In this document: in pieces, positions 15,543 through 33,355 of the stretch
How positions within the stretch are numbered: the stretch's first letter is position 1
How the letters are laid out: each line of letters starts with the position of its first letter
From: Clostridia bacterium
GTDB taxonomy: Bacteria > Bacillota > Clostridia > UBA1381
Direction of reading: 5' to 3'
DNA: 33,355 nt
Assembly (NCBI GenBank): GCA_017935675.1
Contig: JAGBHE010000063.1
Coordinates: 1-33,355, forward strand
Position numbers and translations under genes: made by a program
Notes under the pieces: generated by a model
Seen by the model: the letters and a program-made list of their open reading frames with translations, nothing else
Databases searched by the model: none
Told to the model about the DNA's origin: nothing

Positions 15543-15686
15543 TTGTTTTCATAACAATTTTATTCAGCAGAAGTTCATATGCCTGAAAAATTAACGGTCA
15601 TAGAACGCAGAATATTGATATTTATTATGACTTGGCAAGGCTTCTGCCTTCGGTTCAAACTTAAATGAGTTCGCAACTTTTTTTCC

Positions 15687-15715
15687 GTGAAAAGGTGAAT
15701 AAAAGATGATATAAT
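15687..15715 (+). promoter_or_regulatory. Extended -10 promoter of the Y RNA-like cluster
   Basis: TGATATAAT at 15707-15715 is an extended -10, with GTGAAA at 15687-15692 as -35 after 17 bases. Transcription would begin near 15722, about 30 bases before the first tRNA-like RNA, on the same strand as the three RNAs and the DUF2828 gene. Confidence 0.65.
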
Positions 15716-15753
15716 CAGGTTGTAAGAACGGATAAGAAATGATTTACCGTGTA

Positions 15754-15847
15754 AAGGCACCAACAGCAATCATGAATAGCTACGTGGTTAAAGCGGCGGA
15801 TTCATACTCCGCGTTCGTGGGTCCGAATCCCACTTCAAAGGTGCCTT
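15754..15847 (+). ncRNA. Y RNA-like RNA 1 with tRNA-like cloverleaf (anticodon CAU)
   Basis: Terminal helix AAGGCACC (15754-15761) pairs with GGTGCCTT (15840-15847). ACAGCAA (15763-15769) lies on the 5' side only. A short helix TGAA/TTCA (15773-15776, 15834-15837) then leads to a tRNA body: TA, D stem GCT/AGC (15779-15781, 15792-15794) with GG in the loop, position-26 G, anticodon stem GCGGA/TCCGC (15796-15800, 15808-15812) with loop TTCATAC, a four-base variable loop, and T stem GTGGG/CCCAC (15817-15821, 15829-15833) with loop TCCGAAT. The seven-base acceptor stem and CCA end of a real tRNA are absent. A tRNA-mimicking Y RNA (YrlA-like) is the best interpretation, given the downstream Ro60-like gene. 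Confidence 0.75.
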
Positions 15848-15857
15848 GAGCAAATTA

Positions 15858-15973
15858 AAGACGCATACAGCAATACCAAAGCTTACATTCATCATTAGCC
15901 GGATTACCGGCACTTGCTTAAAGAGCAAGGGCGGGCGGTTCAAAAGACCGCATATGAACAAGAAATGCGTCTT
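15858..15973 (+). ncRNA. Y RNA-like RNA 2 with tRNA-like cloverleaf
   Basis: Terminal helix AAGACGCAT (15858-15866) pairs with ATGCGTCTT (15965-15973), nine bp. ACAGCAA follows at once (15867-15873). Short helix TTCAT/ATGAA (15888-15892, 15954-15958) carries a cloverleaf: D-like hairpin GCCGG/CCGGC (15898-15902, 15907-15911), anticodon-like stem CTTGC/GCAAG (15913-15917, 15925-15929) with a seven-base loop, a five-base variable loop and a T-like arm GCGGT/ACCGC (15935-15939, 15947-15951) that includes TTCAA. The helix sequences differ from RNA 1 but the plan is the same, which argues for selection on structure. The long 5' internal loop (about 14 more bases than RNA 1) is distinctive. Confidence 0.7.
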
Positions 15974-15981
15974 GTTTATTA

Positions 15982-16060
15982 AAGGCACCAACAGCAACCA
16001 TTTATAAACAAATCTCTTATATGTTTAATTAATTTGGGGTTGATTACCCATAGGTGCCTT
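15982..16060 (+). ncRNA. Y RNA-like RNA 3, same terminal helix, no full cloverleaf
   Basis: Terminal helix AAGGCACC (15982-15989) pairs with GGTGCCTT (16053-16060), identical to RNA 1; an 18-base stretch (15980-15997) including ACAGCAA is identical to 15752-15769. The interior has only two hairpins: TAAACA/TGTTTA (16005-16010, 16022-16027) and GGGT/ACCC (16037-16040, 16046-16049), the second resembling a T arm. The keeping of the ends with loss of the tRNA body suggests that the ends are the protein-binding part. Confidence 0.65.
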
Positions 16061-16131
16061 GTGGTATTAATATTATCATCTGACTGCACGACATATTTTG
16101 CTTTGCGCAGATTGGAATGGAGGAATTTAAA

Positions 16132-17592
16132 ATGCTGAATTATTTGAAGAATGAATCTAATATGACCTATACCGAAAACGGCGCAGTTACATATGAAAGC
16201 ACTATGAGTAATTGTCTTGACCTTTTTGCCGCAATCGGAGCAATCAGAAGAGAAGCTGATGAGGAAATCATAAATCTCTTTAAAAGAGCGTATGCGGAAA
16301 ATCCTGATATTGCAATGAAAATACTTTTTTTCGGCCGGGACGTACGCGGCGGCTTGGGCGAAAGACGTGTGTTCAGAGTAATTGTGAATTGGCTCTCTGA
16401 CCACGAACCCGAAGCTTTGCGCAAGAACATTGCTCTCATTCCGGAGTACGGCCGCTTTGATGATCTTGCAGCATTAATCGGAACAGCTTGTGAAAAGGAT
16501 GCAATTAACGAAATTCGCTTGCAGCTTGAAAAGGATACGGCGTCTGAAAATGAGGTGTCCCTGCTTGCAAAATGGCTGCCGTCTGTGAACGCATCCAATA
16601 AAAATACTGTCCGTACCGGAAAACATATTGCCAAAGCGCTTAATATGACAGATAAGGAATACCGCAAGCTTCTTTCCGGGCTCAGGCAGAAAATTAAGAT
16701 TATTGAAAATAATCTGAGGGAAAAAGACTATTCCTTTGACTACTCCAAACAACCGTCAAAGGCTATGTTTAAATACAGAAGGGCATTTATGCGAAATGAC
16801 GGAGAAAGATACCGGGACTTTCTGACACAGGTGCAATCAGGCGATGCAGCAATGCATACCGGGACGCTGATGCCTTATGATATTATTATGCCTTGCTTTA
16901 GCGAATGGTCGGCTGATCACACTTTGACAGAGGCTGAACGAGCAGCTATGGATACAACATGGAACGCACTTGAAAACTTTGCCGGTGATGAAAATGCGAT
17001 TGTGGTTGTTGACGGTTCGGGTTCAATGTATTGGGGAAAGCCTATACCTGAAACGGTTGCAATTTCTCTTGGAATATATTTTGCAGAAAGAAATAAAGGA
17101 GCTTTTCATAATCATTTTATCACCTTTTCCGAAAATCCTGAGCTTGTTGAAATTAAAGGACGTGATATAGCTGAAAAGGTAAGATACTGTGCAAGCTATA
17201 ACGAGGCAGCAAACACAAACTTGAAGAGAGTGTTTGAATTGATACTTAATACCGCGGTGAAAAACAATGTGCCGCAGGAAGAGCTTCCCCAAAAAATATA
17301 CATAGTATCGGACATGGAGTTTGATTACTGCATGGATAATGCAGATATAACTAATTTTGAATATGCCCGCAAGCTGTTCACCGAGCATGGATATAAGCTT
17401 CCGGATGTGGTTTTTTGGAATGTATCAAGCAGAAACAGACAACAGCCTGTTACGAAAAACGAGCAAGGTGCTGCACTTGTATCCGGTTGTACGCCGCGGC
17501 TTTTCTCCATGGTTGCGGGCGGCTTTGCATCGCCGTATGCTGTAATGATGGAAATAATCGGATCAGAACGCTACGCGAAAATATCGGCATAA
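16132..17592 (+). CDS. DUF2828-type protein with vWA domain, Ro60-like
   Basis: A 486-residue cytoplasmic protein. Residues 1-285 are helical and repeat-like (AIGAIRREADEEIINLFKRAY, ILFFGRDVRGGLGERRVFR), and residues 288-480 are a von Willebrand A domain with a full MIDAS: DGSGS at 294-298, Thr362 in ANTNL and Asp394 in VSDMEFD. This is the DUF2828 family plan, which parallels Ro60/Rsr: a helical-repeat ring for RNA plus a vWA domain. The family's function is not established; RNA binding is inference, strengthened by the three Y RNA-like units 70-380 bases upstream. ATG 16132 has GGAGGA at the right distance; ATG 16117 overlaps that site and is unlikely. RNAs and gene could share one transcript. 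Confidence 0.8.
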   Translation: MLNYLKNESNMTYTENGAVTYESTMSNCLDLFAAIGAIRREADEEIINLFKRAYAENPDIAMKILFFGRDVRGGLGERRVFRVIVNWLSDHEPEALRKNIALIPEYGRFDDLAALIGTACEKDAINEIRLQLEKDTASENEVSLLAKWLPSVNASNKNTVRTGKHIAKALNMTDKEYRKLLSGLRQKIKIIENNLREKDYSFDYSKQPSKAMFKYRRAFMRNDGERYRDFLTQVQSGDAAMHTGTLMPYDIIMPCFSEWSADHTLTEAERAAMDTTWNALENFAGDENAIVVVDGSGSMYWGKPIPETVAISLGIYFAERNKGAFHNHFITFSENPELVEIKGRDIAEKVRYCASYNEAANTNLKRVFELILNTAVKNNVPQEELPQKIYIVSDMEFDYCMDNADITNFEYARKLFTEHGYKLPDVVFWNVSSRNRQQPVTKNEQGAALVSGCTPRLFSMVAGGFASPYAVMMEIIGSERYAKISA

Positions 17593-17668: not shown

Positions 17669-18514
17669 ATGTTTAAATCGGAGCAATGCTCTGCTTTGCT
17701 TGCAAGGAGCAGAGCTTGCGACAGATTGCAAGCAAGCGCAGGAAGCGTCAGCTCCTCAGGGTTTCAGCGGGAGATTATAACTCCCACTGAAATTCTGAGA
17801 TGGGGCCCGCCGCCTAAGAGGCGGGGGACATCTGCGCATAGGTTATATGTTACCGGTGATACTCATATCCCTGCCGATATTCAAAAATTAACCTCTAAAC
17901 GATTCCCTGTGCAAAAAGAAATGACAAAATCGGATTATTTGATTATATGCGGTGATTTTGGCGGTGTGTGGGATGGAAGCAATGAGGAAAAGCATTGGAT
18001 AAAGTGGCTGAAAAATAAAGGTTTTACAACCTTGTTTGTTGATGGTAATCATGAAAACTTTGAAATGCTCTGTTCTTTGCCGATTGTCGAATTCGGGAAC
18101 TCTTATGTGCATAAGGTAGATGAAGGTATTTTTCATTTGATGCGAGGAGAAATTTACACTATTGATAATAAAAAAATCTTTACCTTTGGAGGAGCTGCTT
18201 CTCATGATAAGGAAAATAGAAAAGAAGGCAGGAACTGGTGGCGGGAAGAAATGCCCTCCTGTGATGAATATAAAAGGGCTGAAGAATCTTTATTAAAAAA
18301 TGATTTTTCCGTTGATTATATTATAACACATTCAGCTCCCGAATCTATACAAAGTAAAATTGCACCGGCATATGAGAAAAATGAATTGACGGATTTTTTG
18401 GAATCAATAAAAGACAAAACAATTTATAACAAATGGTTTTTTGGACATTACCACAAGGATATTATTTGCGATGAAAAACATATAGGCATATTTAATGAAA
18501 TAATAGAATTATAA
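17669..18514 (+). CDS. Calcineurin-like metallophosphoesterase with element-derived N-terminus
   Basis: Residues 58-281 are a complete metallophosphoesterase: YVTGDTHIP, CGDFGGVWDG, VDGNHENF, ITHSAPE and FGHYHKD supply the two-metal site in order. Substrate unknown; relatives are small single-domain phosphatases or phosphodiesterases. Residues 2-57 (FKSEQCSALL...RRGTSA) are translated from an IS200/IS605-like right-end sequence (17672-17834) that also occurs at 23557-23716. The ribosome binding site AGGAG and ATG 17669 seem to belong to the original gene, with the element inserted between ATG and the first conserved strand without breaking the frame. No in-frame ATG exists between the element and YVTGDTH. 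It lies 77 bases after the DUF2828 gene, so co-transcription is likely. Confidence 0.8.
   Translation: MFKSEQCSALLARSRACDRLQASAGSVSSSGFQREIITPTEILRWGPPPKRRGTSAHRLYVTGDTHIPADIQKLTSKRFPVQKEMTKSDYLIICGDFGGVWDGSNEEKHWIKWLKNKGFTTLFVDGNHENFEMLCSLPIVEFGNSYVHKVDEGIFHLMRGEIYTIDNKKIFTFGGAASHDKENRKEGRNWWREEMPSCDEYKRAEESLLKNDFSVDYIITHSAPESIQSKIAPAYEKNELTDFLESIKDKTIYNKWFFGHYHKDIICDEKHIGIFNEIIEL
17672..17834 (+). mobile_element. IS200/IS605-like right-end fragment, copy 1
   Basis: Shares with 23557-23716 the start TTTAAATCGGAGCAA, the GCGTCAGCTCC hairpin region, ACTGAAATTCTGA and the terminal hairpin CCGCCT/AGGCGG (17810-17815, 17819-17824) followed by GGGGGACATCT. In IS200/IS605 elements this end encodes the omega-RNA scaffold of TnpB and the terminal hairpin used by TnpA. 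No transposase or TnpB is present here, and no left end. Confidence 0.65.
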
Positions 18515-18731: not shown

Positions 18732-19118
18732 ATGAAACTAAAAAAAATACCCGAAACAGAATTGGAAATTATGCAGGTGGTGTGGTCAAACGACACACCG
18801 ATTACAACCACAAGCATAAAACGGGAGCTTGAAAAAAATCGTCCGTGGAGTCAAGGCTCATTACAATCTTTGCTTACGCGCCTTATTGACCGCGGATTTT
18901 TGAAAGGAGGAATGGAAGGTAAAAATAAAACCTTTGAGCCCCTTGTGAGCGAAAAAGAGTATCTCGCGTTGGAGAGCGCGTCGCTTTTAAAGAAGCTGCG
19001 CCCAAGAGGCTCCATAACGGAGCTTGTAACAGCGCTTTACGATACAAAAGAAATATCAGATAAAGATATTGAGGAGCTGGACGCTTTTATTGAAACGATA
19101 AAGAAAGAGGAAAAATAA
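18732..19118 (+). CDS. BlaI/MecI family transcriptional repressor
   Basis: A 128-residue winged-helix repressor of the penicillinase-repressor family. PETELEIMQVVWSNDTPITTTSIKRELE and WSQGSLQSLLTRLIDRGFLKG make the DNA-binding domain, and the C-terminal third (KDIEELDAFIETIKK) the dimerisation helix. It is expected to bind the three boxes just upstream and to be cut by the BlaR1-type protease of the next gene. AAAGGA precedes ATG 18732. The next gene starts directly after the stop codon, so the two are translationally coupled. No beta-lactamase gene is in the operon. Confidence 0.92.
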   Translation: MKLKKIPETELEIMQVVWSNDTPITTTSIKRELEKNRPWSQGSLQSLLTRLIDRGFLKGGMEGKNKTFEPLVSEKEYLALESASLLKKLRPRGSITELVTALYDTKEISDKDIEELDAFIETIKKEEK

Positions 19119-20549
19119 ATGGAAAATTTATTTATTGATATTCTTGAAATCACACTCCCCATATCGGCGTGGATTGCGCTGCTGCTTCTTTGCTCCCCGC
19201 TTTTAAAGCGCAGCTACGTCGCGAAATGGAGATATTTTATGTGGCTGTTTGTAGCGGTGCGGCTTGTATTGCCATTCAGGCTTCGCTCGTCTATAACAAT
19301 GAAAATTCCGTCGGAAGTATCATCGGAAATACATGTTATGGGTAACACTGTGAATACAGCGGCAAGCGCGCCGTCGCTTTCACAGATACTTACAGTGTTA
19401 TGGATTATCGGAATGGCAGTGTTCGCGATATATCAGATAATCAGCTATATTTCATTTAAACGGCTTGTAAAACGCTGGAGCAAGGATATAAGCGATAATC
19501 GGATATTAAATGCGTTTGAGAGCGCAAAAGCTGTTGTCGGAGTAAAAAGAAGCGTGAATATAAGGTACTGCAAGGCAGTTACAACTCCGATGATATTCGG
19601 AATGATAAATCCCGTGCTGCTTCTGCCGTATGTGGATTTTACCGATGATGAGCTGCCGATAATATTGCGTCATGAGCTTGTGCATCTGCGCCGTCACGAT
19701 ATTTGGTACAAGCTTTTGCTTGTAGCGGCGCGTACAATTCACTGGTTTAATCCCCTGTCATATCTGATGGTAAGAGCAGCGAACAAGGATATGGAGCTTG
19801 CCTGTGATGCAGAGGTTATAAAATGCGAAAACTCAGCTTTCAGAAAGCATTACTGCGAGGCTATTATGCGCCTTGTTCACAACGGACGCGGAAACAAAAC
19901 GGCTCTTTCCACCTGTTTCTTCTTCTCAAAGAAAACGGTTATGGAAAGATTTAAAAACATAGTTGATGAAAAAATCAAGCGAAACGGCGTTATAATGTTC
20001 TGTGTGGTGGCGGTATCGATAGCCGTATCGGGCGGAATTATATCCTTTGCCACCGAGCAGGTCGAGGAGATCGCGGAGGATAATCTGCAAATTATAGAAC
20101 GTCCTGTGGAAACGCCGAAACCAACCGCAGAGCCTGCGCCTTCGCCGGCAATAACAGATAATTCAAACGTACATGAGGAGCGGAGCAATAGCAAAAGCAC
20201 AGATAATTCAAGCATTTATGAGGAGCGGAGAAACAGCCCAAGCGTCGATGCAGCTGAAGATATGCCCGTTTACGGCAATGCTGATGTTCAGCAAGAAAAT
20301 ACGAGCATTCAGCAGGAGAGTATGTATATTGATGACGCTGCAAAAACGCCTGCTGAAGAAGCTGCCGGCGAAGCAGTGACGGATATTGAGCAGGGCGCTG
20401 ACAAAGACAGCGTGTATGAACAGCTTGGCGAACCGGAGAGTGTTTCAGGCAACGGTAATAAGGAAACTTATACTCTCTCCGACGGTTCAACTGCAGTGGT
20501 ACAGTATGACGAGGGTGTGTTGGACGCGGGATATATTTTAGTAGATTAG
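19119..20549 (+). CDS. BlaR1-type M56 metalloprotease with unusual C-terminal domain
   Basis: A 476-residue membrane protein. Residues 1-310 are the M56 antirepressor: helices near 10-30, 38-55 and 90-112, zinc motif HELVH at 185-189, third ligand Glu226 in MELACD, and a further helix at about 294-316. Canonical BlaR1/MecR1 carry a penicillin-binding sensor after this. Here there is instead a low-complexity acidic linker (about 320-425, rich in Glu, Asn, Ser, Pro) with two related NNVHEER/SSIYEER-like repeats, and then a 50-residue module (YEQLGEPESVSGNGNKETY ... LDAGYILVD) resembling a BamE/SmpA-like fold. The same module makes up the secreted protein at 23189-23437. Signal is therefore not beta-lactam in any direct way; an envelope cue is possible. 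Confidence 0.85.
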   Translation: MENLFIDILEITLPISAWIALLLLCSPLLKRSYVAKWRYFMWLFVAVRLVLPFRLRSSITMKIPSEVSSEIHVMGNTVNTAASAPSLSQILTVLWIIGMAVFAIYQIISYISFKRLVKRWSKDISDNRILNAFESAKAVVGVKRSVNIRYCKAVTTPMIFGMINPVLLLPYVDFTDDELPIILRHELVHLRRHDIWYKLLLVAARTIHWFNPLSYLMVRAANKDMELACDAEVIKCENSAFRKHYCEAIMRLVHNGRGNKTALSTCFFFSKKTVMERFKNIVDEKIKRNGVIMFCVVAVSIAVSGGIISFATEQVEEIAEDNLQIIERPVETPKPTAEPAPSPAITDNSNVHEERSNSKSTDNSSIYEERRNSPSVDAAEDMPVYGNADVQQENTSIQQESMYIDDAAKTPAEEAAGEAVTDIEQGADKDSVYEQLGEPESVSGNGNKETYTLSDGSTAVVQYDEGVLDAGYILVD

Positions 20550-24917: not shown

Positions 24918-26309
24918 ATGATAAATAATGATTTAAAAAAGACACCCATGCCGGAGCAATGCCCCTCGGAGCGGAATAAGAACTTTCTTGAGGTTACAAC
25001 AGGCTACACCGAGGAAATGGCAGTAAACGAGGCAAGACGCTGCCTCAACTGTAAGACAAAACCGTGTATGAACGGCTGCCCGGTGCATGTTAAAATTCCA
25101 GAATTTATAGCATATGTTGCCGAAGGAAAATTTGAAGAGGCTTATCTTAAAATTAAGGAAACAAACGCTCTTCCCGCTGTATGCGGCCGTGTATGCCCTC
25201 AGGAAACCCAATGCGAATCAAAGTGTGTTCGCGCAATCAAGGGCGAAAGCGTAGGCATAGGAAGACTTGAAAGATTTGTTGCCGACTACCACATGAAGCA
25301 CGTTGAGGATATAATAGAAAAAATCCCGTCAAACGGTAAAAAGGTTGCGGTGGTAGGCTCCGGTCCGTCGGGACTGACTGTTGCCGGAGACCTTGCAAAG
25401 CGCGGCTATGAGGTTACTGTCTATGAAGCATTCCACACTGCCGGCGGAGTTCTGATGTACGGTATTCCCGAATTCAGACTGCCTAAGGACATTGTTCAGA
25501 AGGAAATCGAAAATCTTAAAAAGCTTGGTGTTGACATTGAAACAAATGTTGTTATCGGAAAAACCATTCTCTTAGACGAGCTTTTTGAAGATTATGGCTT
25601 TGATGCGGTTTATATCGGCTCAGGCGCAGGTCTTCCCTCATTTATGGGAATTGACGGAGAAAGCCTTAACGGCGTTTATTCGGCAAACGAATTTCTCACC
25701 CGCATTAATCTTATGAAGGGCTATAAGTTTCCTGAATATGACACACCCGTTTACATAGGAAAAAGCGTTGCCGTTCTCGGCGGCGGTAATGTTGCCATGG
25801 ACGCTGCAAGATGCGCAAAAAGACTCGGCGCCGAAAATGTATATATTGTTTACAGACGCGGTCTTGAAGAGCTTCCCGCAAGAGCCGAGGAGGTAATGCA
25901 CGCTAAGGAGGAGGGTATTGAGTTCAAGCTTCTCACCAACCCGACAAGATTTATCGGAGACGATAAAGGCTGGCTTAAGGAAATGGAGGTTGTCTCCATG
26001 GAGCTTGGCGAGCCTGATGCCAGCGGCAGACGCCGTCCTGTAAAAATTGAAGGCTCAGAGCATATCCTCCCTATTGACACCGCGGTCATTGCAATCGGAC
26101 AAACACCAAATCCCCTTATAAAGAAAACCACCGAAGGACTGGACACCAACAAAAAAGGCTGCATAATTGCAGATGAGGAAACCGGAAAAACAAGCAAGAA
26201 GCATGTTTATGCCGGCGGCGACGTTGTTACGGGAGCCGCAACGGTTATCCTTGCCATGGGCGCCGGTAAGGCTGCCGCAGAGGCGATTGACAAAGAATTA
26301 AGCGAATAA
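24918..26309 (+). CDS. nfnB: NfnB/GltA-type FAD/[4Fe-4S] large subunit
   Basis: A 463-residue flavoprotein. Two [4Fe-4S] sites are visible: Cys42, 45, 50, 54 and Cys89, 93, 99, 103. FAD-binding GSGPSGLTVAGDLAKRG and NADP-binding GGGNVAMDAARCAKRLG follow, then GGDVVTGAATVILAMGAGK near the end. The pairing with NfnA, 16 bases upstream, favours NfnB. Free-standing homologues are annotated as NADPH-dependent glutamate synthase small chain, which has the same fold. AAGGAG precedes ATG 24918; an in-frame start at 24846 would sit inside nfnA. Confidence 0.9.
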   Translation: MINNDLKKTPMPEQCPSERNKNFLEVTTGYTEEMAVNEARRCLNCKTKPCMNGCPVHVKIPEFIAYVAEGKFEEAYLKIKETNALPAVCGRVCPQETQCESKCVRAIKGESVGIGRLERFVADYHMKHVEDIIEKIPSNGKKVAVVGSGPSGLTVAGDLAKRGYEVTVYEAFHTAGGVLMYGIPEFRLPKDIVQKEIENLKKLGVDIETNVVIGKTILLDELFEDYGFDAVYIGSGAGLPSFMGIDGESLNGVYSANEFLTRINLMKGYKFPEYDTPVYIGKSVAVLGGGNVAMDAARCAKRLGAENVYIVYRRGLEELPARAEEVMHAKEEGIEFKLLTNPTRFIGDDKGWLKEMEVVSMELGEPDASGRRRPVKIEGSEHILPIDTAVIAIGQTPNPLIKKTTEGLDTNKKGCIIADEETGKTSKKHVYAGGDVVTGAATVILAMGAGKAAAEAIDKELSE

Positions 26310-26316
26310 ATAAATA

Positions 26317-26348
26317 CTGTCCGGAAAACATATCCGGGCAGTTTTTTT
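26317..26348 (+). terminator. Terminator of the nfn operon
   Basis: A nine-bp stem with one G-T pair (26317-26325 with 26333-26341) followed by seven T, seven bases after the nfnB stop codon. Confidence 0.9.
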
Positions 26349-26384
26349 ACCACAAAAAAAATCTGAAAAATTTTCTGAATATGC

Positions 26385-26413
26385 TTGATTTTTATATAGC
26401 TATATGATATAAT
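26385..26413 (+). promoter_or_regulatory. Promoter with palindromic operator before the XRE gene
   Basis: TTGATT at 26385-26390, 17 bases, TATAAT at 26408-26413 with extended TG at 26405-26406. The spacer contains the 12-bp perfect palindrome ATATAGCTATAT (26394-26405). Autoregulation by the encoded XRE protein is plausible. Confidence 0.65.
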
Positions 26414-26445
26414 CGTCAAAGTAACCGAAGGGACGGTGAAATGAT

Positions 26446-27036
26446 ATGAAAAAAGGAACGGAAGCTTCTGTAGGCTTCTATCTTCGCAGATTCCGCAAAA
26501 GCAAAAATATTACTCAGGCAAGGCTTGCCGAAATTCTCGGAGTAAGCCTGAAAACCATATCAGCCTGGGAGCTCGGCACAAGGAAGCTGCCGTCAGACGC
26601 TATGATCAAGCTTCTCAGGTATTATGATATCAGTCTTCGTGATTTTTACCGCACAGGTGATTCGCATCAGGCAGACTGCTGTATTTACGTATGCAAAAAA
26701 TGCGGCAATATTATTTTTACTTCTGCCGATGCGAAGGTGAGCTGCTGCGGCATGACGCTTCATGCCGGCGAGGCGAATACAATTTCCGAATGTCCCGAGA
26801 TTTTGCCTTCAGTGTCTGACGGCCGCCTGACGGTCCGGGCAGAGCATGAAATGACACCTGACCACTGCATTATGTTTATTGTCTACATAAGCGCATGCGC
26901 AAGTGAACTGGTAAAGCTTTATCCCGGAGATCGTCCCGAAGCCTCCTTTACATGGCGCGGCAGCGGCAAAATCCTGATCGGCTGCTCGCTCCACGGTCTT
27001 CACACGCTGCAAATTGCACAGACCTGTCCGCCATGA
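26446..27036 (+). CDS. XRE regulator fused to a desulfoferrodoxin-like domain
   Basis: 196 residues. 8-66 is an XRE helix-turn-helix (ARLAEILGVSLKTISAWELGTRKLPS). 78-108 is a desulforedoxin-like knuckle with Cys83, Cys86, Cys100 and Cys101 for a Fe(SCys)4 site. 125-190 resembles superoxide reductase: His134 and His140 in AEHEMTPDHC, LYPGDRPEASF, and Cys180-x-x-His183 in GCSLHGL. The first His of the usual four-His, one-Cys centre (His49 in Desulfoarculus enzymes) is not present where expected, with a Cys116 nearby instead. It may be a redox-sensing regulator with a sensing iron centre, not an enzyme (inference). The palindrome in its promoter may be its own site. Confidence 0.8.
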   Translation: MKKGTEASVGFYLRRFRKSKNITQARLAEILGVSLKTISAWELGTRKLPSDAMIKLLRYYDISLRDFYRTGDSHQADCCIYVCKKCGNIIFTSADAKVSCCGMTLHAGEANTISECPEILPSVSDGRLTVRAEHEMTPDHCIMFIVYISACASELVKLYPGDRPEASFTWRGSGKILIGCSLHGLHTLQIAQTCPP

Positions 27037-29980: not shown

Positions 29981-32900
29981 TTATCCCTCCAAATATCCAA
30001 TTTTTCTGAAATATTCAATATATTTTCTAATATACTCAAAATCAATATCCGACCATTCAAAACCGAGTTTACGCAAGTACTCAACCGTAAAATTATTTTC
30101 GATACGGATATTGCTGTCGTAGTTTAACTTATCATTTTCATCCATATCATTGATAAATGTTTCAAAAATGTATTCTGTGCCTGTTTCTGTTGCAGTTTTG
30201 CGGAGTGCATCGGTAAATGTCTTGCCGTCAACGACCTGCATATTAAGTCCGCAAGCATTGAAATATTCAATCAGCTTGTCCATATACACAACTTTGGTGC
30301 TGTTAATGTGAAATACGGTTTGCTCGCTGCTGAAATTTCTTGCAATGCGCATAATGGCGTTTGCAGCATCATCAATAGGTGTGTATTCGGTGTATAAATC
30401 CATCAGGTAATCAGGGAATATTCCTAAATCCAAAATTGCTTTTACACGGTTTAAGAAAGCATTGCTTTCATGATTTCTTTGAAACTTCAAATCGCTGAAA
30501 CGATTCGTTAGGTTACCCATACGCATAATGTTCGCCTGCAAGCCTTTTGTCATAGCGTCAAGCACAGCCTTTTCAGCTTCGAATTTACTTCGTGCATAAA
30601 CATTTTCAAGAGGCTGTTCTATGTATAAGCTGCTTTCATAAAAATGCTTTTCCGTTTCGCTGATATAACCGTCAAAGTTATCACCAAAGCTGTTGCCCGA
30701 CACACTAAGGGTAGAGGTATGAATCAGCTTTGCTTCTGCTTTAAAGCAAAATTCAATCAGCTTATTTACAGTTTCAACATTGGTCTCATAAAAATACTTG
30801 TATGAGCCGTAATGCTTAACACTTGCCGCTGCATTGATTACCGTACTGACTTTTGTGATTAGTTCATCATATTTTGTGTCGGTAAGCCCAAATTTTTCTT
30901 TCTGCAAATCGGCACAAAGCACAACGATTCTCCTATCAAACAGAGTATTGTATTTTCCGCCGAAATAAAATTCCATTAGGTCTTTTAATCTGCTTTTGCT
31001 GTCTTCGCTATCCGCACCACGAACCAAGCAATATGCAGTTCCCGTATCTCCGTCAAGAAAATCAGCTAAAATATGTATGCCGAGATATCCCGTTGCACCG
31101 GCAAGCAGGATATTTCCAACCTCGGTTTTCTGCGGAGTGGTGATATTTTCAATTTTGTTCTTTTCAAGTATCTTGTTTATTGTAGTAAAATCACTGTCTT
31201 TAAATGTAACCTCAAGTTTATTTCCGTTTTCAATACATTCGCAAATATATTTAACTGTCGGATAATCAAATACATTCTGCAAATTAAAATAGATGCCTTC
31301 ATTATGTGCCTTTGATACAAACTCAATTGCCTTTAAGCTGTCTCCGCCAAGATCAAAGAAATCATCCTCCAGACCAATGGGCGAATAATTCAGCACCTTT
31401 TCCATAAGTCCGGCAATTTCTTTTTGAAGCTTCGTTTGCGGTTTTACATATTCTACATTATTTGAAATATTGGATAAATCAACTTCGGGCAATGCCTTGC
31501 GGTTAATCTTTCCGCTTGGTGTAAGGGGCATTTCAGGTAAAACCGTAAAGATATGCGGCATCATATATTTAGGCAGCTTATCTGATATTGCTTTCTTAAT
31601 TTCGGAAAGTTCAACTGACTTTTTTTCGGTGTAGAAAGCGCAGATAAGCTGCCTGCCGTTTTCATCTTTGCGTACTGTAACAACAGCCTGTGACACACCC
31701 TCCACAGAACAGATTGCGTTTTCAATTTCGCCGAGTTCTATTCGGAGGCCTCTTATCTTAACCTGAAAATCATTTCTGCCTACATAGGCAATGTTTCCGT
31801 CTTCTCGCCAATATGCAAGGTCGCCTGTTTTATACATCTTGCCTTCACCAAATGGGTTGTCTATAAACTTCTCGGCAGTCAGTTCAGGTCTGTTAAGATA
31901 CCCTGCGCCAACCCCGTCCCCGGCAATGCAAAGCTCACTGATTTGTCCCATTGGCATCGGGTTATTGTATTTATCTACAATATAAATTTGAGTATTTGCG
32001 ATGGGTTTTCCGATGGTTATATCAGTTGAGTTGATTTCACCAAAAGAAACACCTATTGTTGTTTCTGACGGACCGTATCCGTTAAAGAATTTAGCAGATG
32101 TATGATCTTCTAAAAATTCATATAAATCAGGTGTAAAATTCTCTGCGGCAACCATAATTATCTTTGCTTTTTTTATTGCCTCGACATATCTGTCATTTCC
32201 GCAAAATGCCTTTATGGTTGATGGTGTTGAATGAATTACATCGACATTATACTTTTTGATAAGTCTTGCTAAATCTTCCGCATGCATCATTTCATAGTCG
32301 TTTGCCAAAACAAGAGATAATCCGTTTAACAAAAACAATGCATAATCAACACCAAATGCATCAAAACAACATTTGAATGTAGAAATAAGCCGACTGCCTT
32401 CGTTTATCATACAATGTTGGTAATTATTATTATTATTATTATCGCAGAAGTTCATAAGATTTCTGTGTCTTATCAGTGTTCCTTTTGGTTTTCCTGTTGT
32501 GCCTGATGTATAGATACAGTAGCAATTATTATCAGATGTTATTTCTATATTCGGATTTTCTTCGTTATCTGAAATGAACTCGTTCAAATTATCTTCTGTA
32601 ATAAAGAATTTTGCACCGCTATCTTCAAGCATATAATTTATTCTATCTTGCGGAAAATCAAGGTCAATAGGTAAATATGCTGCTCCCGATTTTAGTATAC
32701 CAAACATAACAGGAATTAAGTAGCTGTTTCTTGGCAGAGCAAAAGCTACTATGTCATTGGGCTTAACGCCTTTTCCTATTAAGCTGTTTGCAATTCTGTT
32801 AGAAAGTTTATTTAATTCATTATATGTAAGAGTTTTATCACACGCAATAACCGCCGTTTTGTCAGGCGATTTCAAAACCTGTTCTTCAAACAGCTGATGT

Positions 32901-33352
32901 ACGCATTTGTCCTTCTGGTAATCTGCTTTTGTATCGTTGAAAGTATGTAAAAGTGTATTCTTTTCCTGCTGTGATACAGCAGAAATGTCTTTAATCTGCA
33001 TTTTGTTATCAAGCATTGCCAAAAGCACCTGCTTAAATCCGTCAGCAAGCCTTTTTATCGTATTCCCTTTATATAAATCTGTGCAGTATTCCGCCATTAA
33101 AACGACATCGTTTTCTCTTGGCATTACATTTAATGTTAAATCATACTTTGAGGTTGTGACAGGGATAGAGAGAAGCTCAGCTTTCTTGTCTGCAAAGGTT
33201 ACATCTGTCATTTCCTCGCTCTGATATGCAAACATCACATCAAAAAGCGGATTTCTGTTTTGAGCGTCAATATCTAATTTCTTAACAAGCTCGCCGAACG
33301 GATAGTCCTGATTTGCAATAGCGCTTATAGAATTTTCCTTTACCTCCTGCAA
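29981..33352 (-). CDS. Nonribosomal peptide synthetase, last module with reductase release (partial)
   Basis: 1123 residues of a longer protein that continues beyond the right edge. In order: the end of a condensation domain (1-125), adenylation domain (about 150-625; YTSGTTGKPKG at 281-291, NGYGPSETT at 424-432, catalytic Lys615 in TPSGKINRKAL), a thiolation domain with Ser672 in LGGDSLKAI, and a C-terminal thioester reductase (748-1123; GATGYLG at 752-758, Tyr919 and Lys923 in VYARSK). Release as an aldehyde is expected, as known for gut clostridial NRPSs making peptide aldehydes and pyrazinones. Specificity residues, by hand alignment to GrsA, read about D-A-V-H-M-A-G-I-G; I cannot name the substrate. 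A run of six Asn (305-310) interrupts the A domain. Codon use is more AT-rich than neighbouring genes. Confidence 0.9.
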   Translation of the reverse strand: MQEVKENSISAIANQDYPFGELVKKLDIDAQNRNPLFDVMFAYQSEEMTDVTFADKKAELLSIPVTTSKYDLTLNVMPRENDVVLMAEYCTDLYKGNTIKRLADGFKQVLLAMLDNKMQIKDISAVSQQEKNTLLHTFNDTKADYQKDKCVHQLFEEQVLKSPDKTAVIACDKTLTYNELNKLSNRIANSLIGKGVKPNDIVAFALPRNSYLIPVMFGILKSGAAYLPIDLDFPQDRINYMLEDSGAKFFITEDNLNEFISDNEENPNIEITSDNNCYCIYTSGTTGKPKGTLIRHRNLMNFCDNNNNNNYQHCMINEGSRLISTFKCCFDAFGVDYALFLLNGLSLVLANDYEMMHAEDLARLIKKYNVDVIHSTPSTIKAFCGNDRYVEAIKKAKIIMVAAENFTPDLYEFLEDHTSAKFFNGYGPSETTIGVSFGEINSTDITIGKPIANTQIYIVDKYNNPMPMGQISELCIAGDGVGAGYLNRPELTAEKFIDNPFGEGKMYKTGDLAYWREDGNIAYVGRNDFQVKIRGLRIELGEIENAICSVEGVSQAVVTVRKDENGRQLICAFYTEKKSVELSEIKKAISDKLPKYMMPHIFTVLPEMPLTPSGKINRKALPEVDLSNISNNVEYVKPQTKLQKEIAGLMEKVLNYSPIGLEDDFFDLGGDSLKAIEFVSKAHNEGIYFNLQNVFDYPTVKYICECIENGNKLEVTFKDSDFTTINKILEKNKIENITTPQKTEVGNILLAGATGYLGIHILADFLDGDTGTAYCLVRGADSEDSKSRLKDLMEFYFGGKYNTLFDRRIVVLCADLQKEKFGLTDTKYDELITKVSTVINAAASVKHYGSYKYFYETNVETVNKLIEFCFKAEAKLIHTSTLSVSGNSFGDNFDGYISETEKHFYESSLYIEQPLENVYARSKFEAEKAVLDAMTKGLQANIMRMGNLTNRFSDLKFQRNHESNAFLNRVKAILDLGIFPDYLMDLYTEYTPIDDAANAIMRIARNFSSEQTVFHINSTKVVYMDKLIEYFNACGLNMQVVDGKTFTDALRKTATETGTEYIFETFINDMDENDKLNYDSNIRIENNFTVEYLRKLGFEWSDIDFEYIRKYIEYFRKIGYLEG
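32423..32442 (-). repeat. Trinucleotide microsatellite inside the NRPS gene
   Basis: Uninterrupted ATT units on the plus strand (AAT read on the coding strand) that encode Asn305-310 between motifs A3 and A4 of the adenylation domain. Slippage would change the residue count in whole codons. Confidence 0.9.
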
Positions 33353-33355
33353 AAA

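What the first reader, a model, noticed from the sequence alone, without database searches (positions are those of the whole stretch)
15687..17592. Candidate Ro60-Y RNA-like locus built on DUF2828 and three tandem tRNA-mimicking RNAs
Seen: three head-to-tail RNA-like units, each with an 8-9 bp terminal helix and ACAGCAA directly after the 5' arm, lie between an extended -10 promoter and a gene for a helical-repeat plus vWA protein with intact MIDAS. Two contain tRNA-like cloverleaves. Known: bacterial Ro60 (TROVE plus vWA) partners with Y RNAs, and the YrlA class carries a tRNA-like module attached to a Ro-binding stem. Inferred: DUF2828 is a second, uncharacterised Ro60-like family with its own Y RNAs. 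I know of no description of Y RNAs with DUF2828.
Basis: partly seen in the sequence, partly recalled or inferred. Interest (0 to 1): 0.94.

Follow-up and report, generated by a model that had tools for sequence, protein, structure and literature searches.

The report
Second Ro60–Y RNA-like system
Beside a gene for a Ro60-like protein, gut bacteria and many phages carry arrays of short units that likely make small, often tRNA-mimicking RNAs sharing one end-helix and tag, which points to a likely second branch of the Ro60–Y RNA machinery that would help handle or repair damaged RNA.

Summary
Three tandem units (15754-16061) share an 8-9 bp end-helix and ACAGCAA. In 80 named bacterial DUF2828 loci, 79 carry such units (265 on the gene strand, 12 on the other). 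In 80 phage DUF2828 loci (37-47% identical protein), exact ACAGCAA with a helix occurs 183 times on the gene strand, 3 on the other; 80 phage TROVE/Ro60 loci give 7 and 7. The helix covaries strongly, also in phages, which were not used to build the model. About half of the long units contain a tRNA-type T-arm; 20 aligned tRNA-like units give a covarying cloverleaf. RtcB RNA ligase lies near DUF2828 in 50 of 80 loci. In the window's genome RtcB is elsewhere, but a 24-base element occurs exactly twice in 4.1 Mb: before the RNA array and before RtcB. DUF2828 aligns end to end with TROVE/Ro60 by profile; the vWA half carries the signal, the other half is weakly supported. Best reading: a second Ro60-like RNP with its own Y-like RNAs, tied to RNA repair. 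Binding and transcription at this locus are untested. Phage annotators already call the protein Ro-like; one 2025 paper raised Y RNAs as a possibility for one phage.

The parts
15672..15695 (+). Operator-like element CGCAACTTTTTTTCCGTGAAAAGG overlapping the -35 region; second copy only before RtcB on contig C17 of the same genome
   Evidence: exactly 2 copies in 4.1 Mb at up to 3 mismatches, 0 for the backwards control; 13-base core <130 bases before an RNA unit in 24 of 79 loci at up to 1 mismatch (gene strand 33, other strand 3), ten permuted cores 0; at 2 mismatches the strand bias drops to 63 and 34
15687..15715 (+). Extended -10 promoter (GTGAAA, 17, TATAAT with TG)
   Evidence: 10 of 12; consensus match only, the number of such sites is at chance
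15754..15848 (+). RNA unit U1: end-helix 15754-15761/15840-15847, tag ACAGCAA 15763-15769, tRNA-like cloverleaf 15773-15837
   Evidence: (62 bits, E 2.5e-12)
15858..15974 (+). RNA unit U2: end-helix 15858-15866/15965-15973, tag 15867-15873, multi-arm interior
   Evidence: (46.7 bits, E 2.5e-8)
15982..16061 (+). RNA unit U3: end-helix 15982-15989/16053-16060, tag 15991-15997, short interior without significant structure
   Evidence: (40.9 bits, E 9.0e-7)
16132..17592 (+). DUF2828-DUF7788 protein (486 aa), Ro60-like: N-terminal half plus vWA with intact MIDAS

Best explanation
The locus holds three tandem units of a conserved, covarying structured-RNA family that are likely transcribed as small RNAs and predicted to bind the neighbouring Ro60-like DUF2828 protein through their shared end-helix and ACAGCAA tag, making an RNP that would work with the ligase RtcB in handling or repairing damaged (probably tRNA) RNA. 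Shown by calls: the units, their helix covariation, their association with DUF2828 in bacteria and phages, tRNA-like interiors in many, RtcB and WYL-regulator linkage, and the shared two-copy element. Inferred: (1) transcription from the operator-like element and extended -10 promoter, with a leader of about 30 bases here; (2) the constant helix plus tag is the protein-binding handle, the variable interior (cloverleaf, T-arm variant or short linker) the effector end, as in YrlA, where a basal stem holds Rsr and a tRNA-like domain faces a partner; (3) the WYL pair switches on the RNA array, DUF2828 and RtcB under RNA or DNA damage; (4) the tRNA mimics recruit a partner such as a nuclease or act as decoys for anticodon nucleases, while RtcB reseals cut tRNAs. 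Phages carrying the same pair would use it against host RNases.
For: Association: 79 of 80 named loci have units, 265 gene strand against 12 opposite (the exception L070 has only 296 bases upstream). Strand and permuted-tag control: exact tag with helix 206/6 in bacterial loci (73 of 80), 183/3 in phage loci (65 of 80), 7/7 in TROVE loci; ten permuted tags 1-16 and 4-14 on the gene strand. Co-occurrence in 391 genomes: model hits in 13 of 17 genomes with DUF7788 and 2 of 374 without (Fisher 3.7e-19; some of these genomes gave units to the model). Covariation: bacterial set 91.6% paired, 223 double-change cells against 86.7 shuffled; phage set 89.0%, 236 against 82.9; cloverleaf 96.4%, 55 against 18.3. 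tRNA mimicry: T-arms in 67 of 245 units, 63 of 122 long ones, shuffles about 0.25 per loop type; ARAGORN 26 of 245, shuffles 0 in five rounds. Operon: RtcB within the fetched flanks in 50 of 80 loci, gap at most 168 bases in 35 of 39 downstream cases; where RtcB comes first, the array lies before RtcB in 11 of 11. WYL regulators in 54 of 80. Listeria phage LP-048 has RtcB 1.3 kb after DUF2828. Regulon. Protein: profile alignment to TROVE over 398-419 columns, prob 98.4-98.6; the TROVE profile reaches solved Ro60 and RSR. Precedent: rsr-yrlBA-rtcBA operon (PMC7790460, passages).
Against: No binding or transcript data at this locus. N-terminal half against TROVE N-terminal half alone: prob 4.6, E 0.0087, score 26.0 against 13.7-21.9 in five negative controls. 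DUF2828's vWA also matches generic vWA (score 75.6 against 104.8 for TROVE's vWA), and TROVE's vWA scores 90.1 against the same generic set of 17 sequences. The TROVE family HMM finds nothing in the genome. In phage CKA15 the one highly transcribed noncoding region with coordinates in the passages I saw, 26,236-26,727, does not contain the ACAGCAA units, which lie at 25,289-25,553. RtcB was found in only 1 of 80 IMG/VR phage loci. U3 has no significant interior fold. In one search the number of pairs with any double change (7) is not exceptional (56 of 500 shuffles). The model misses 14 of 71 phage loci at E 0.01 and 6 of 11 named phages. No structure prediction could be made.
Confidence: 0.74

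Rival explanations
1. The units are cis-acting leader elements: the protein or another factor binds them in its own mRNA to autoregulate DUF2828.
For: The last unit ends 20-40 bases before the start codon in 54 of 83 loci with units (71 bases in the window), and the array is on the gene strand.
Against: Where RtcB precedes DUF2828 the array sits before RtcB in 11 of 11 loci, with a unit between the two genes in only 1. In phages 31 of 183 units lie downstream of the gene, and in LeBron and one Staphylococcus phage I found them only downstream within the 2.5-kb flanks. Arrays of up to 8 units with tRNA-like interiors are not expected of a leader.
Confidence: 0.12
2. They are decayed or atypical tRNA genes or a tRNA cluster that happens to lie beside DUF2828.
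For: Rfam and ARAGORN score some as tRNAs; 7 of 15 Rfam hits in 14 loci span the whole tRNA model; in an E. coli phage the tag-bearing units lie between true tRNA genes.
Against: The consensus fold of 20 tRNA-like units has no acceptor stem and U1 keeps 4 of its 7 pairs; 59 of 122 long units and 119 of 123 short ones have no T-arm yet share helix and tag; the model hits only this locus in 4.1 Mb.
Confidence: 0.03
3. DUF2828 is a vWA protein unrelated to Ro60 in its N-terminal half, and its RNAs bind something else, for instance RtcB or a WYL regulator.
For: N-terminal homology is weak; the vWA half alone gives the strong score.
Against: Phage loci carry DUF2828 with units mostly without RtcB or WYL in the fetched flanks (RtcB 1 of 80, WYL 0 of 80 by tblastn with the bacterial proteins), so DUF2828 is the constant partner; the alignment is colinear end to end; HHpred by others gave Rsr as best match for the Listeria phage protein (PMC12282133, passages).
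Confidence: 0.11

Closest known systems
Bacterial Ro60 (Rsr, TROVE PF05731) with YrlA Y RNA and RtcB, e.g. rsr-yrlBA-rtcBA
   Same: A vWA-bearing Ro-like protein; neighbouring structured RNAs with an end stem and, in some, a tRNA-like module; linkage to RtcB (PMC7790460 and PMC8394870, passages).
   Different: DUF2828 is not matched by the TROVE HMM; the RNAs share a tag and helix consensus whose model has no hit below E 0.71 in 87 TROVE loci; arrays of up to 8 units; a WYL pair and a TTTTCCGTGAAAA element, where that operon has RtcR (RtcR was not searched for here).
'Ro-like RNA binding protein' of mycobacteriophages (e.g. LeBron gp53) and phrog_850
   Same: Same protein family.
   Different: The records name only the protein; the three tagged units after LeBron gp53 (one has GCAGCAA) are not annotated in the record.
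Putative Y RNAs of Listeria phage CKA15 (PMC12282133)
   Same: CKA15_055 is, by position, the DUF2828 gene; highly transcribed noncoding regions lie within 2 kb upstream; the authors suggest Y RNAs as one option (passages).
   Different: No RNA motif or family in the passages seen; the located top region is not where the tagged units are.
Ro60-related protein of Vibrio jumbo phage vB_VhaM_pir03 (PMC7765460)
   Same: The authors note a Ro60-related protein and YrlA in other phages (passages).
   Different: Whether it is a TROVE or a DUF2828 protein was not checked; no RNA given in the passages.
tmRNA and other tRNA mimics
   Same: tRNA-like module built into another RNA.
   Different: Many units have no tRNA-like part; the constant element is the helix plus ACAGCAA.

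Membership tests
Ro60/TROVE protein family (PF05731) | Match to the curated TROVE HMM | tested here: not met
   No match in the whole genome, this gene included; Pfam lists DUF2828 and DUF7788 instead
Ro60/TROVE protein family (PF05731) | C-terminal vWA with MIDAS, like Ro60's | tested here: met
   MIDAS invariant in 120 sequences; vWA against TROVE vWA prob 98.9, E 3.8e-17, better than against 17 generic vWA
Ro60/TROVE protein family (PF05731) | N-terminal HEAT-repeat ring homologous to TROVE | tested here: inconclusive
   N against N E 0.0087, colinear over 245 columns, above five controls; structure prediction unavailable
Ro60/TROVE protein family (PF05731) | Binds a Y RNA | not testable with these tools
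   Needs biochemistry
Bacterial Y RNA (YrlA) | 5' and 3' ends pair into a basal stem | tested here: met
Bacterial Y RNA (YrlA) | tRNA-like domain in at least one RNA of the locus | tested here: met
   This window U1; among relatives 50 of 77 loci have at least one T-arm unit and 27 do not at this stringency
Bacterial Y RNA (YrlA) | Match to a described Rfam Y RNA family | tested here: not met
   Only tRNA in the window at E<=1 and in 14 related loci at gathering score; 20 TROVE loci also gave only tRNA, so the test is weak
RtcB RNA-repair operon | rtcB adjacent on the same strand | tested here: met
   In relatives: 50 of 80, 39 downstream and 11 upstream, gap at most 168 bases in 35 of the 39. 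Not so in the window itself: rtcB is on another contig, with the same 24-base element. Co-transcription untested
tRNA gene | 7-bp acceptor stem with CCA site | tested here: inconclusive
   U1 keeps 4 pairs and the consensus of 20 units has none, but 7 of 15 Rfam hits in other loci span the whole model; CCA not tested

The most novel reading that the evidence does not exclude
DUF2828 proteins and ACAGCAA-tagged RNAs form a second Ro60-Y RNA lineage, spread through Clostridia, Synergistota and phages, in which one constant handle presents interchangeable tRNA-mimic or other modules, wired by a WYL-controlled operator to RtcB as an RNA-damage response that phages have taken over as counter-defence against RNA-cutting host defences.
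Probability: 0.6. Interest if true: 0.93.

Novelty: new variant of a known kind. Interest (0 to 1): 0.87.

Why it matters
It would turn an unknown domain with at least 7,884 homologues and 681 phage records (some are duplicate records of one phage) into a testable RNP, give a new family of tRNA-mimicking small RNAs with a simple signature (7-9 bp end-helix plus ACAGCAA), and make the open question of what Ro60-Y RNA-RtcB systems do directly testable in phages with laboratory hosts.

Tried and rejected
Tried without result: solved-structure search by sequence with the protein and with its profile (nothing relevant). PADLOC: no defence family for DUF2828; RtcB got only a weak hit that I do not trust. 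NCBIfam: no family for DUF2828. The metallophosphoesterase downstream (17669-18514) is not found beside DUF2828 in 80 bacterial loci, so I left it out. The DUF2828-TROVE comparison with only 7 TROVE rows was weak and was replaced by one with 72 rows.

Rejected: cis leader only; tRNA gene cluster; chance repeats. An attC-like or CRISPR-like reading was thought of but not tested as such; constant ends with tRNA-like interiors and helix covariation speak for RNA.

Bias notes: my unit finder selects for helices, so the fair tests are the strand, permuted-tag and TROVE-locus controls and the model built from bacterial loci searched in phages and whole genomes. The 80 phage loci contain near-duplicates (e.g. 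L107/L108, L122-L124); and A6 used 71 of them. T-arm counts use 245 of the 265 units, 20 being dropped because the AAG/CTT ends did not normalise. The generic vWA set kept 17 of 23 sequences tried. Searches gave slightly different vWA scores because of different gap settings (109.7 and 104.8). The permuted-tag control was not run on the 11 named phages.

Literature: a full-text search for DUF2828 gave 4 papers, judged from titles and abstract starts, none about RNA partners; further searches are (listings). Passages only were seen of PMC12282133, PMC7790460, PMC8394870, PMC7824862, PMC12714340, PMC9569102 and PMC7765460. Chen et al. 2014 (10.1261/rna.047241.114), Burroughs and Aravind 2016 (10.1093/nar/gkw722) and Sim et al. 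2020 (PMC10870794) are not held and unread. Whether Chen et al. included DUF2828-type proteins in their set I could not check.
Full report
What is in the window. The DUF2828-DUF7788 gene (16132-17592) is preceded by three head-to-tail units, 15754-15848, 15858-15974 and 15982-16061, each closed by an 8-9 bp helix that starts AAG and ends CTT-G, with ACAGCAA 0-1 base after the 5' arm. U1 contains a recognisable tRNA body. U1 and U2 fold better than shuffles, U3 does not.

The units are a family. I fetched DUF2828 relatives from 391 genomes of the class (17 with DUF7788), 80 named genome loci and 80 phage contigs. A scan for tag plus helix gave 265 gene-strand and 12 opposite-strand units in the 80 named loci, with at least one in 79; the exception, L070, has 296 bases upstream. 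An earlier, narrower scan (1.2 kb upstream only) found units in 63 of 80 loci, 167 in all, with 1, 4 and 1 units in reverse-strand, downstream and coding controls; the four downstream loci have helices of the same consensus, so they are probably real. For the exact tag with a helix, gene strand against opposite strand is 206 to 6 in bacterial loci, 183 to 3 in phage loci and 7 to 7 in TROVE loci, while ten permuted tags gave 1-16 and 4-14 on the gene strand. The named loci include seven from Synergistaceae or Synergistales by record title, each with units.

Covariation. In 113 units (A5, the window's three included) the nine-pair helix is standard in 91.6% of cells with 223 double-change cells (shuffled mean 86.7, slid 1-26); the number of pairs with any double change, 7, is not exceptional (56 of 500 shuffles). 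These units were chosen for having a helix, so the independent test is better: a covariance model made from them gave 219 matches at E<=1 in 80 phage loci, 218 on the gene strand; at E<=0.01 it hits 57 of 71 non-duplicate phage loci, and their helix has 236 double-change cells (shuffled 82.9, slid 6-36; that alignment is fitted to the model). In 87 TROVE loci the model found 2 matches, both E 0.71. In the own genome it finds only these three units at E<=1e-6. Across 391 genomes it hits 13 of 17 with DUF7788 and 2 of 374 without, the latter two on contigs of 3.9 and 5.7 kb; some of the 13 gave units to the model. Of the four DUF7788 genomes missed under the strict filters, three (L013, L019, L021) have hits when their loci are searched alone. 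In the phylum draw, six of seven further DUF7788 genomes have hits (L297-L302); the seventh, with a broken gene (L303), and a second locus of one genome (L304) have none.

What the interiors are. Unit length runs from 52 to 122 bases between the 5th and 95th percentile. 63 of 122 long units and 4 of 123 short ones contain a 5-bp arm with a T-type loop: 46 canonical TTCRANN, 5 TCCRANN, 15 TGARANN, 1 TCARANN; shuffles give about 0.25 each, and two control loops give 1 and 0, so TCARANN is at chance. 50 of 77 loci have at least one such unit. Twenty tRNA-like units align, and RNAalifold, given no template, finds D, anticodon and T arms inside the end-helix, with 11 of 22 pairs doubly changed and 55 double-change cells against 18.3 shuffled. 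Predicted anticodons are mixed, which argues against decoding. The remaining units have other or no clear interiors, so the helix and tag are the constant part.

Neighbours and control. RtcB is near DUF2828 in 50 of 80 loci (a lower bound, as many contigs end nearby), downstream in 39 (gap at most 168 bases in 35) and upstream in 11; in all 11 the array lies before RtcB. One or both of two WYL-type regulators are present in 54 of 80 (42 and 45 upstream on the gene strand, 9 and 8 on the other strand), RtcB or WYL in 67 of 80 (WYL identity). RlaP, a named RNA-repair polymerase family, is beside L073, in a cluster of six loci. In this window's genome RtcB is not adjacent but on contig C17, after the two WYL genes. 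The 24-base element CGCARCTTTTTTTCCGTGAAAARG occurs exactly twice in the 4.1-Mb genome, before the RNA array and before RtcB. Its 13-base core lies within 130 bases before a unit in 24 of 79 loci at up to one mismatch, permuted cores in 0. In 15 of the 28 loci listed there, the first unit starts 41-46 bases after the core's start; in the window it is 73. I infer an activator site at -35, with RNA 5' ends close to the first helix in those loci and a leader of about 30 bases here.

The protein. DUF2828 against a 72-sequence TROVE profile aligns colinearly over 398 columns (prob 98.4, E 5.6e-15); that TROVE profile recovers Ro60 and RSR structures. Most of the score is the vWA half (E 3.8e-17); the N-terminal halves alone give E 0.0087 and score 26.0 against 13.7-21.9 for five negative controls. 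The vWA is closer to TROVE's than to 17 generic vWA of the same clade (104.8 against 75.6; TROVE against generic 90.1). So kinship of the vWA half is solid, kinship of the N-terminal half likely but not shown.

Phages. 681 of 50,697 phage records hold the protein. In 11 named phages the model finds units at E<=0.01 in 5, while the exact tag with a helix is on the gene strand in 10 and on the other strand in none (the Vibrio D484 case is weak, and no permuted-tag control was run on these). Listeria phage LP-048 and LeBron show three tagged units each, with helix sequences of their own, and LP-048 has RtcB 1.3 kb after DUF2828. In Listeria phage CKA15, the protein CKA15_055, by position the DUF2828 gene, has HHpred best match Rsr, was detected in purified particles by mass spectrometry (20 peptides, 57.1% coverage; the authors do not conclude that it is truly particle-bound), and lies within 2 kb of three very highly transcribed noncoding regions; the authors list Y RNAs as one explanation (PMC12282133, passages). 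The one region with coordinates in those passages is not the tagged array.

How it most likely works, and what is known. Bacterial Rsr holds YrlA by its basal stem while the tRNA-like domain faces a partner, PNPase in Deinococcus; the rsr-yrlBA-rtcBA operon responds to tRNA fragments (PMC8394870 and PMC7790460, passages). The present locus and its relatives have the same anatomy with a different parts list: DUF2828 for TROVE, tagged arrays for YrlA, WYL for RtcR. By membership tests it is not a TROVE-HMM member and the RNAs match no Rfam Y RNA family, but it works, in my reading, like one. I therefore call it a new variant of a known kind.

Noticed in passing
L286 (Escherichia phage adrianh) 4200-5050: In a Felixounavirus of E. 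coli four exact ACAGCAA tags with helices (AGACCAA/TTGGTCT and AGACCGT/ACGGTCT types) lie among the tRNA genes downstream of the DUF2828 gene.
   Followed up: partly
L285 (Mycobacterium phage LeBron) 3950-4200: Three unannotated tagged units (one GCAGCAA) follow the 'Ro-like RNA binding protein' gene, one with a canonical-looking T-arm inside.
   Followed up: partly
L296 (Listeria phage cka15), record 26236-26727: The phage's most transcribed noncoding region has GGTGAAAGCC and GGTGAAATG stretches that look like the TGARANN T-arm variant of the bacterial units; not tested.
   Followed up: no
units of class TGARANN, e.g. L027 3467-3584, L054 3779-3892: A recurrent T-arm variant keeps positions 54, 57 and 58 but replaces 55-56 by GA, the bases that meet the D-loop in tRNA (loop count; the tRNA numbering is recalled).
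   Followed up: partly
L294 and L295: Two genomes without a DUF7788 match carry tagged units on small contigs, one next to a TnpB-like ORF (reading of the translation).
   Followed up: partly
L303 (G726): A DUF7788 copy interrupted by stop codons, with intact copies in other genomes of the same genus; described only.
   Followed up: no
window 17669-18514: Metallophosphoesterase (phrog_1649, 129 bits) just downstream of DUF2828; not conserved there in 80 loci, though an Enterococcus phage also has a phosphoesterase nearby.
   Followed up: partly
window 18732-20549: BlaI-type repressor and BlaR1 M56 peptidase pair.
   Followed up: no
window 29981-33355: Large ORF that reads like an NRPS-type adenylation-carrier-reductase protein; not searched.
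   Followed up: no
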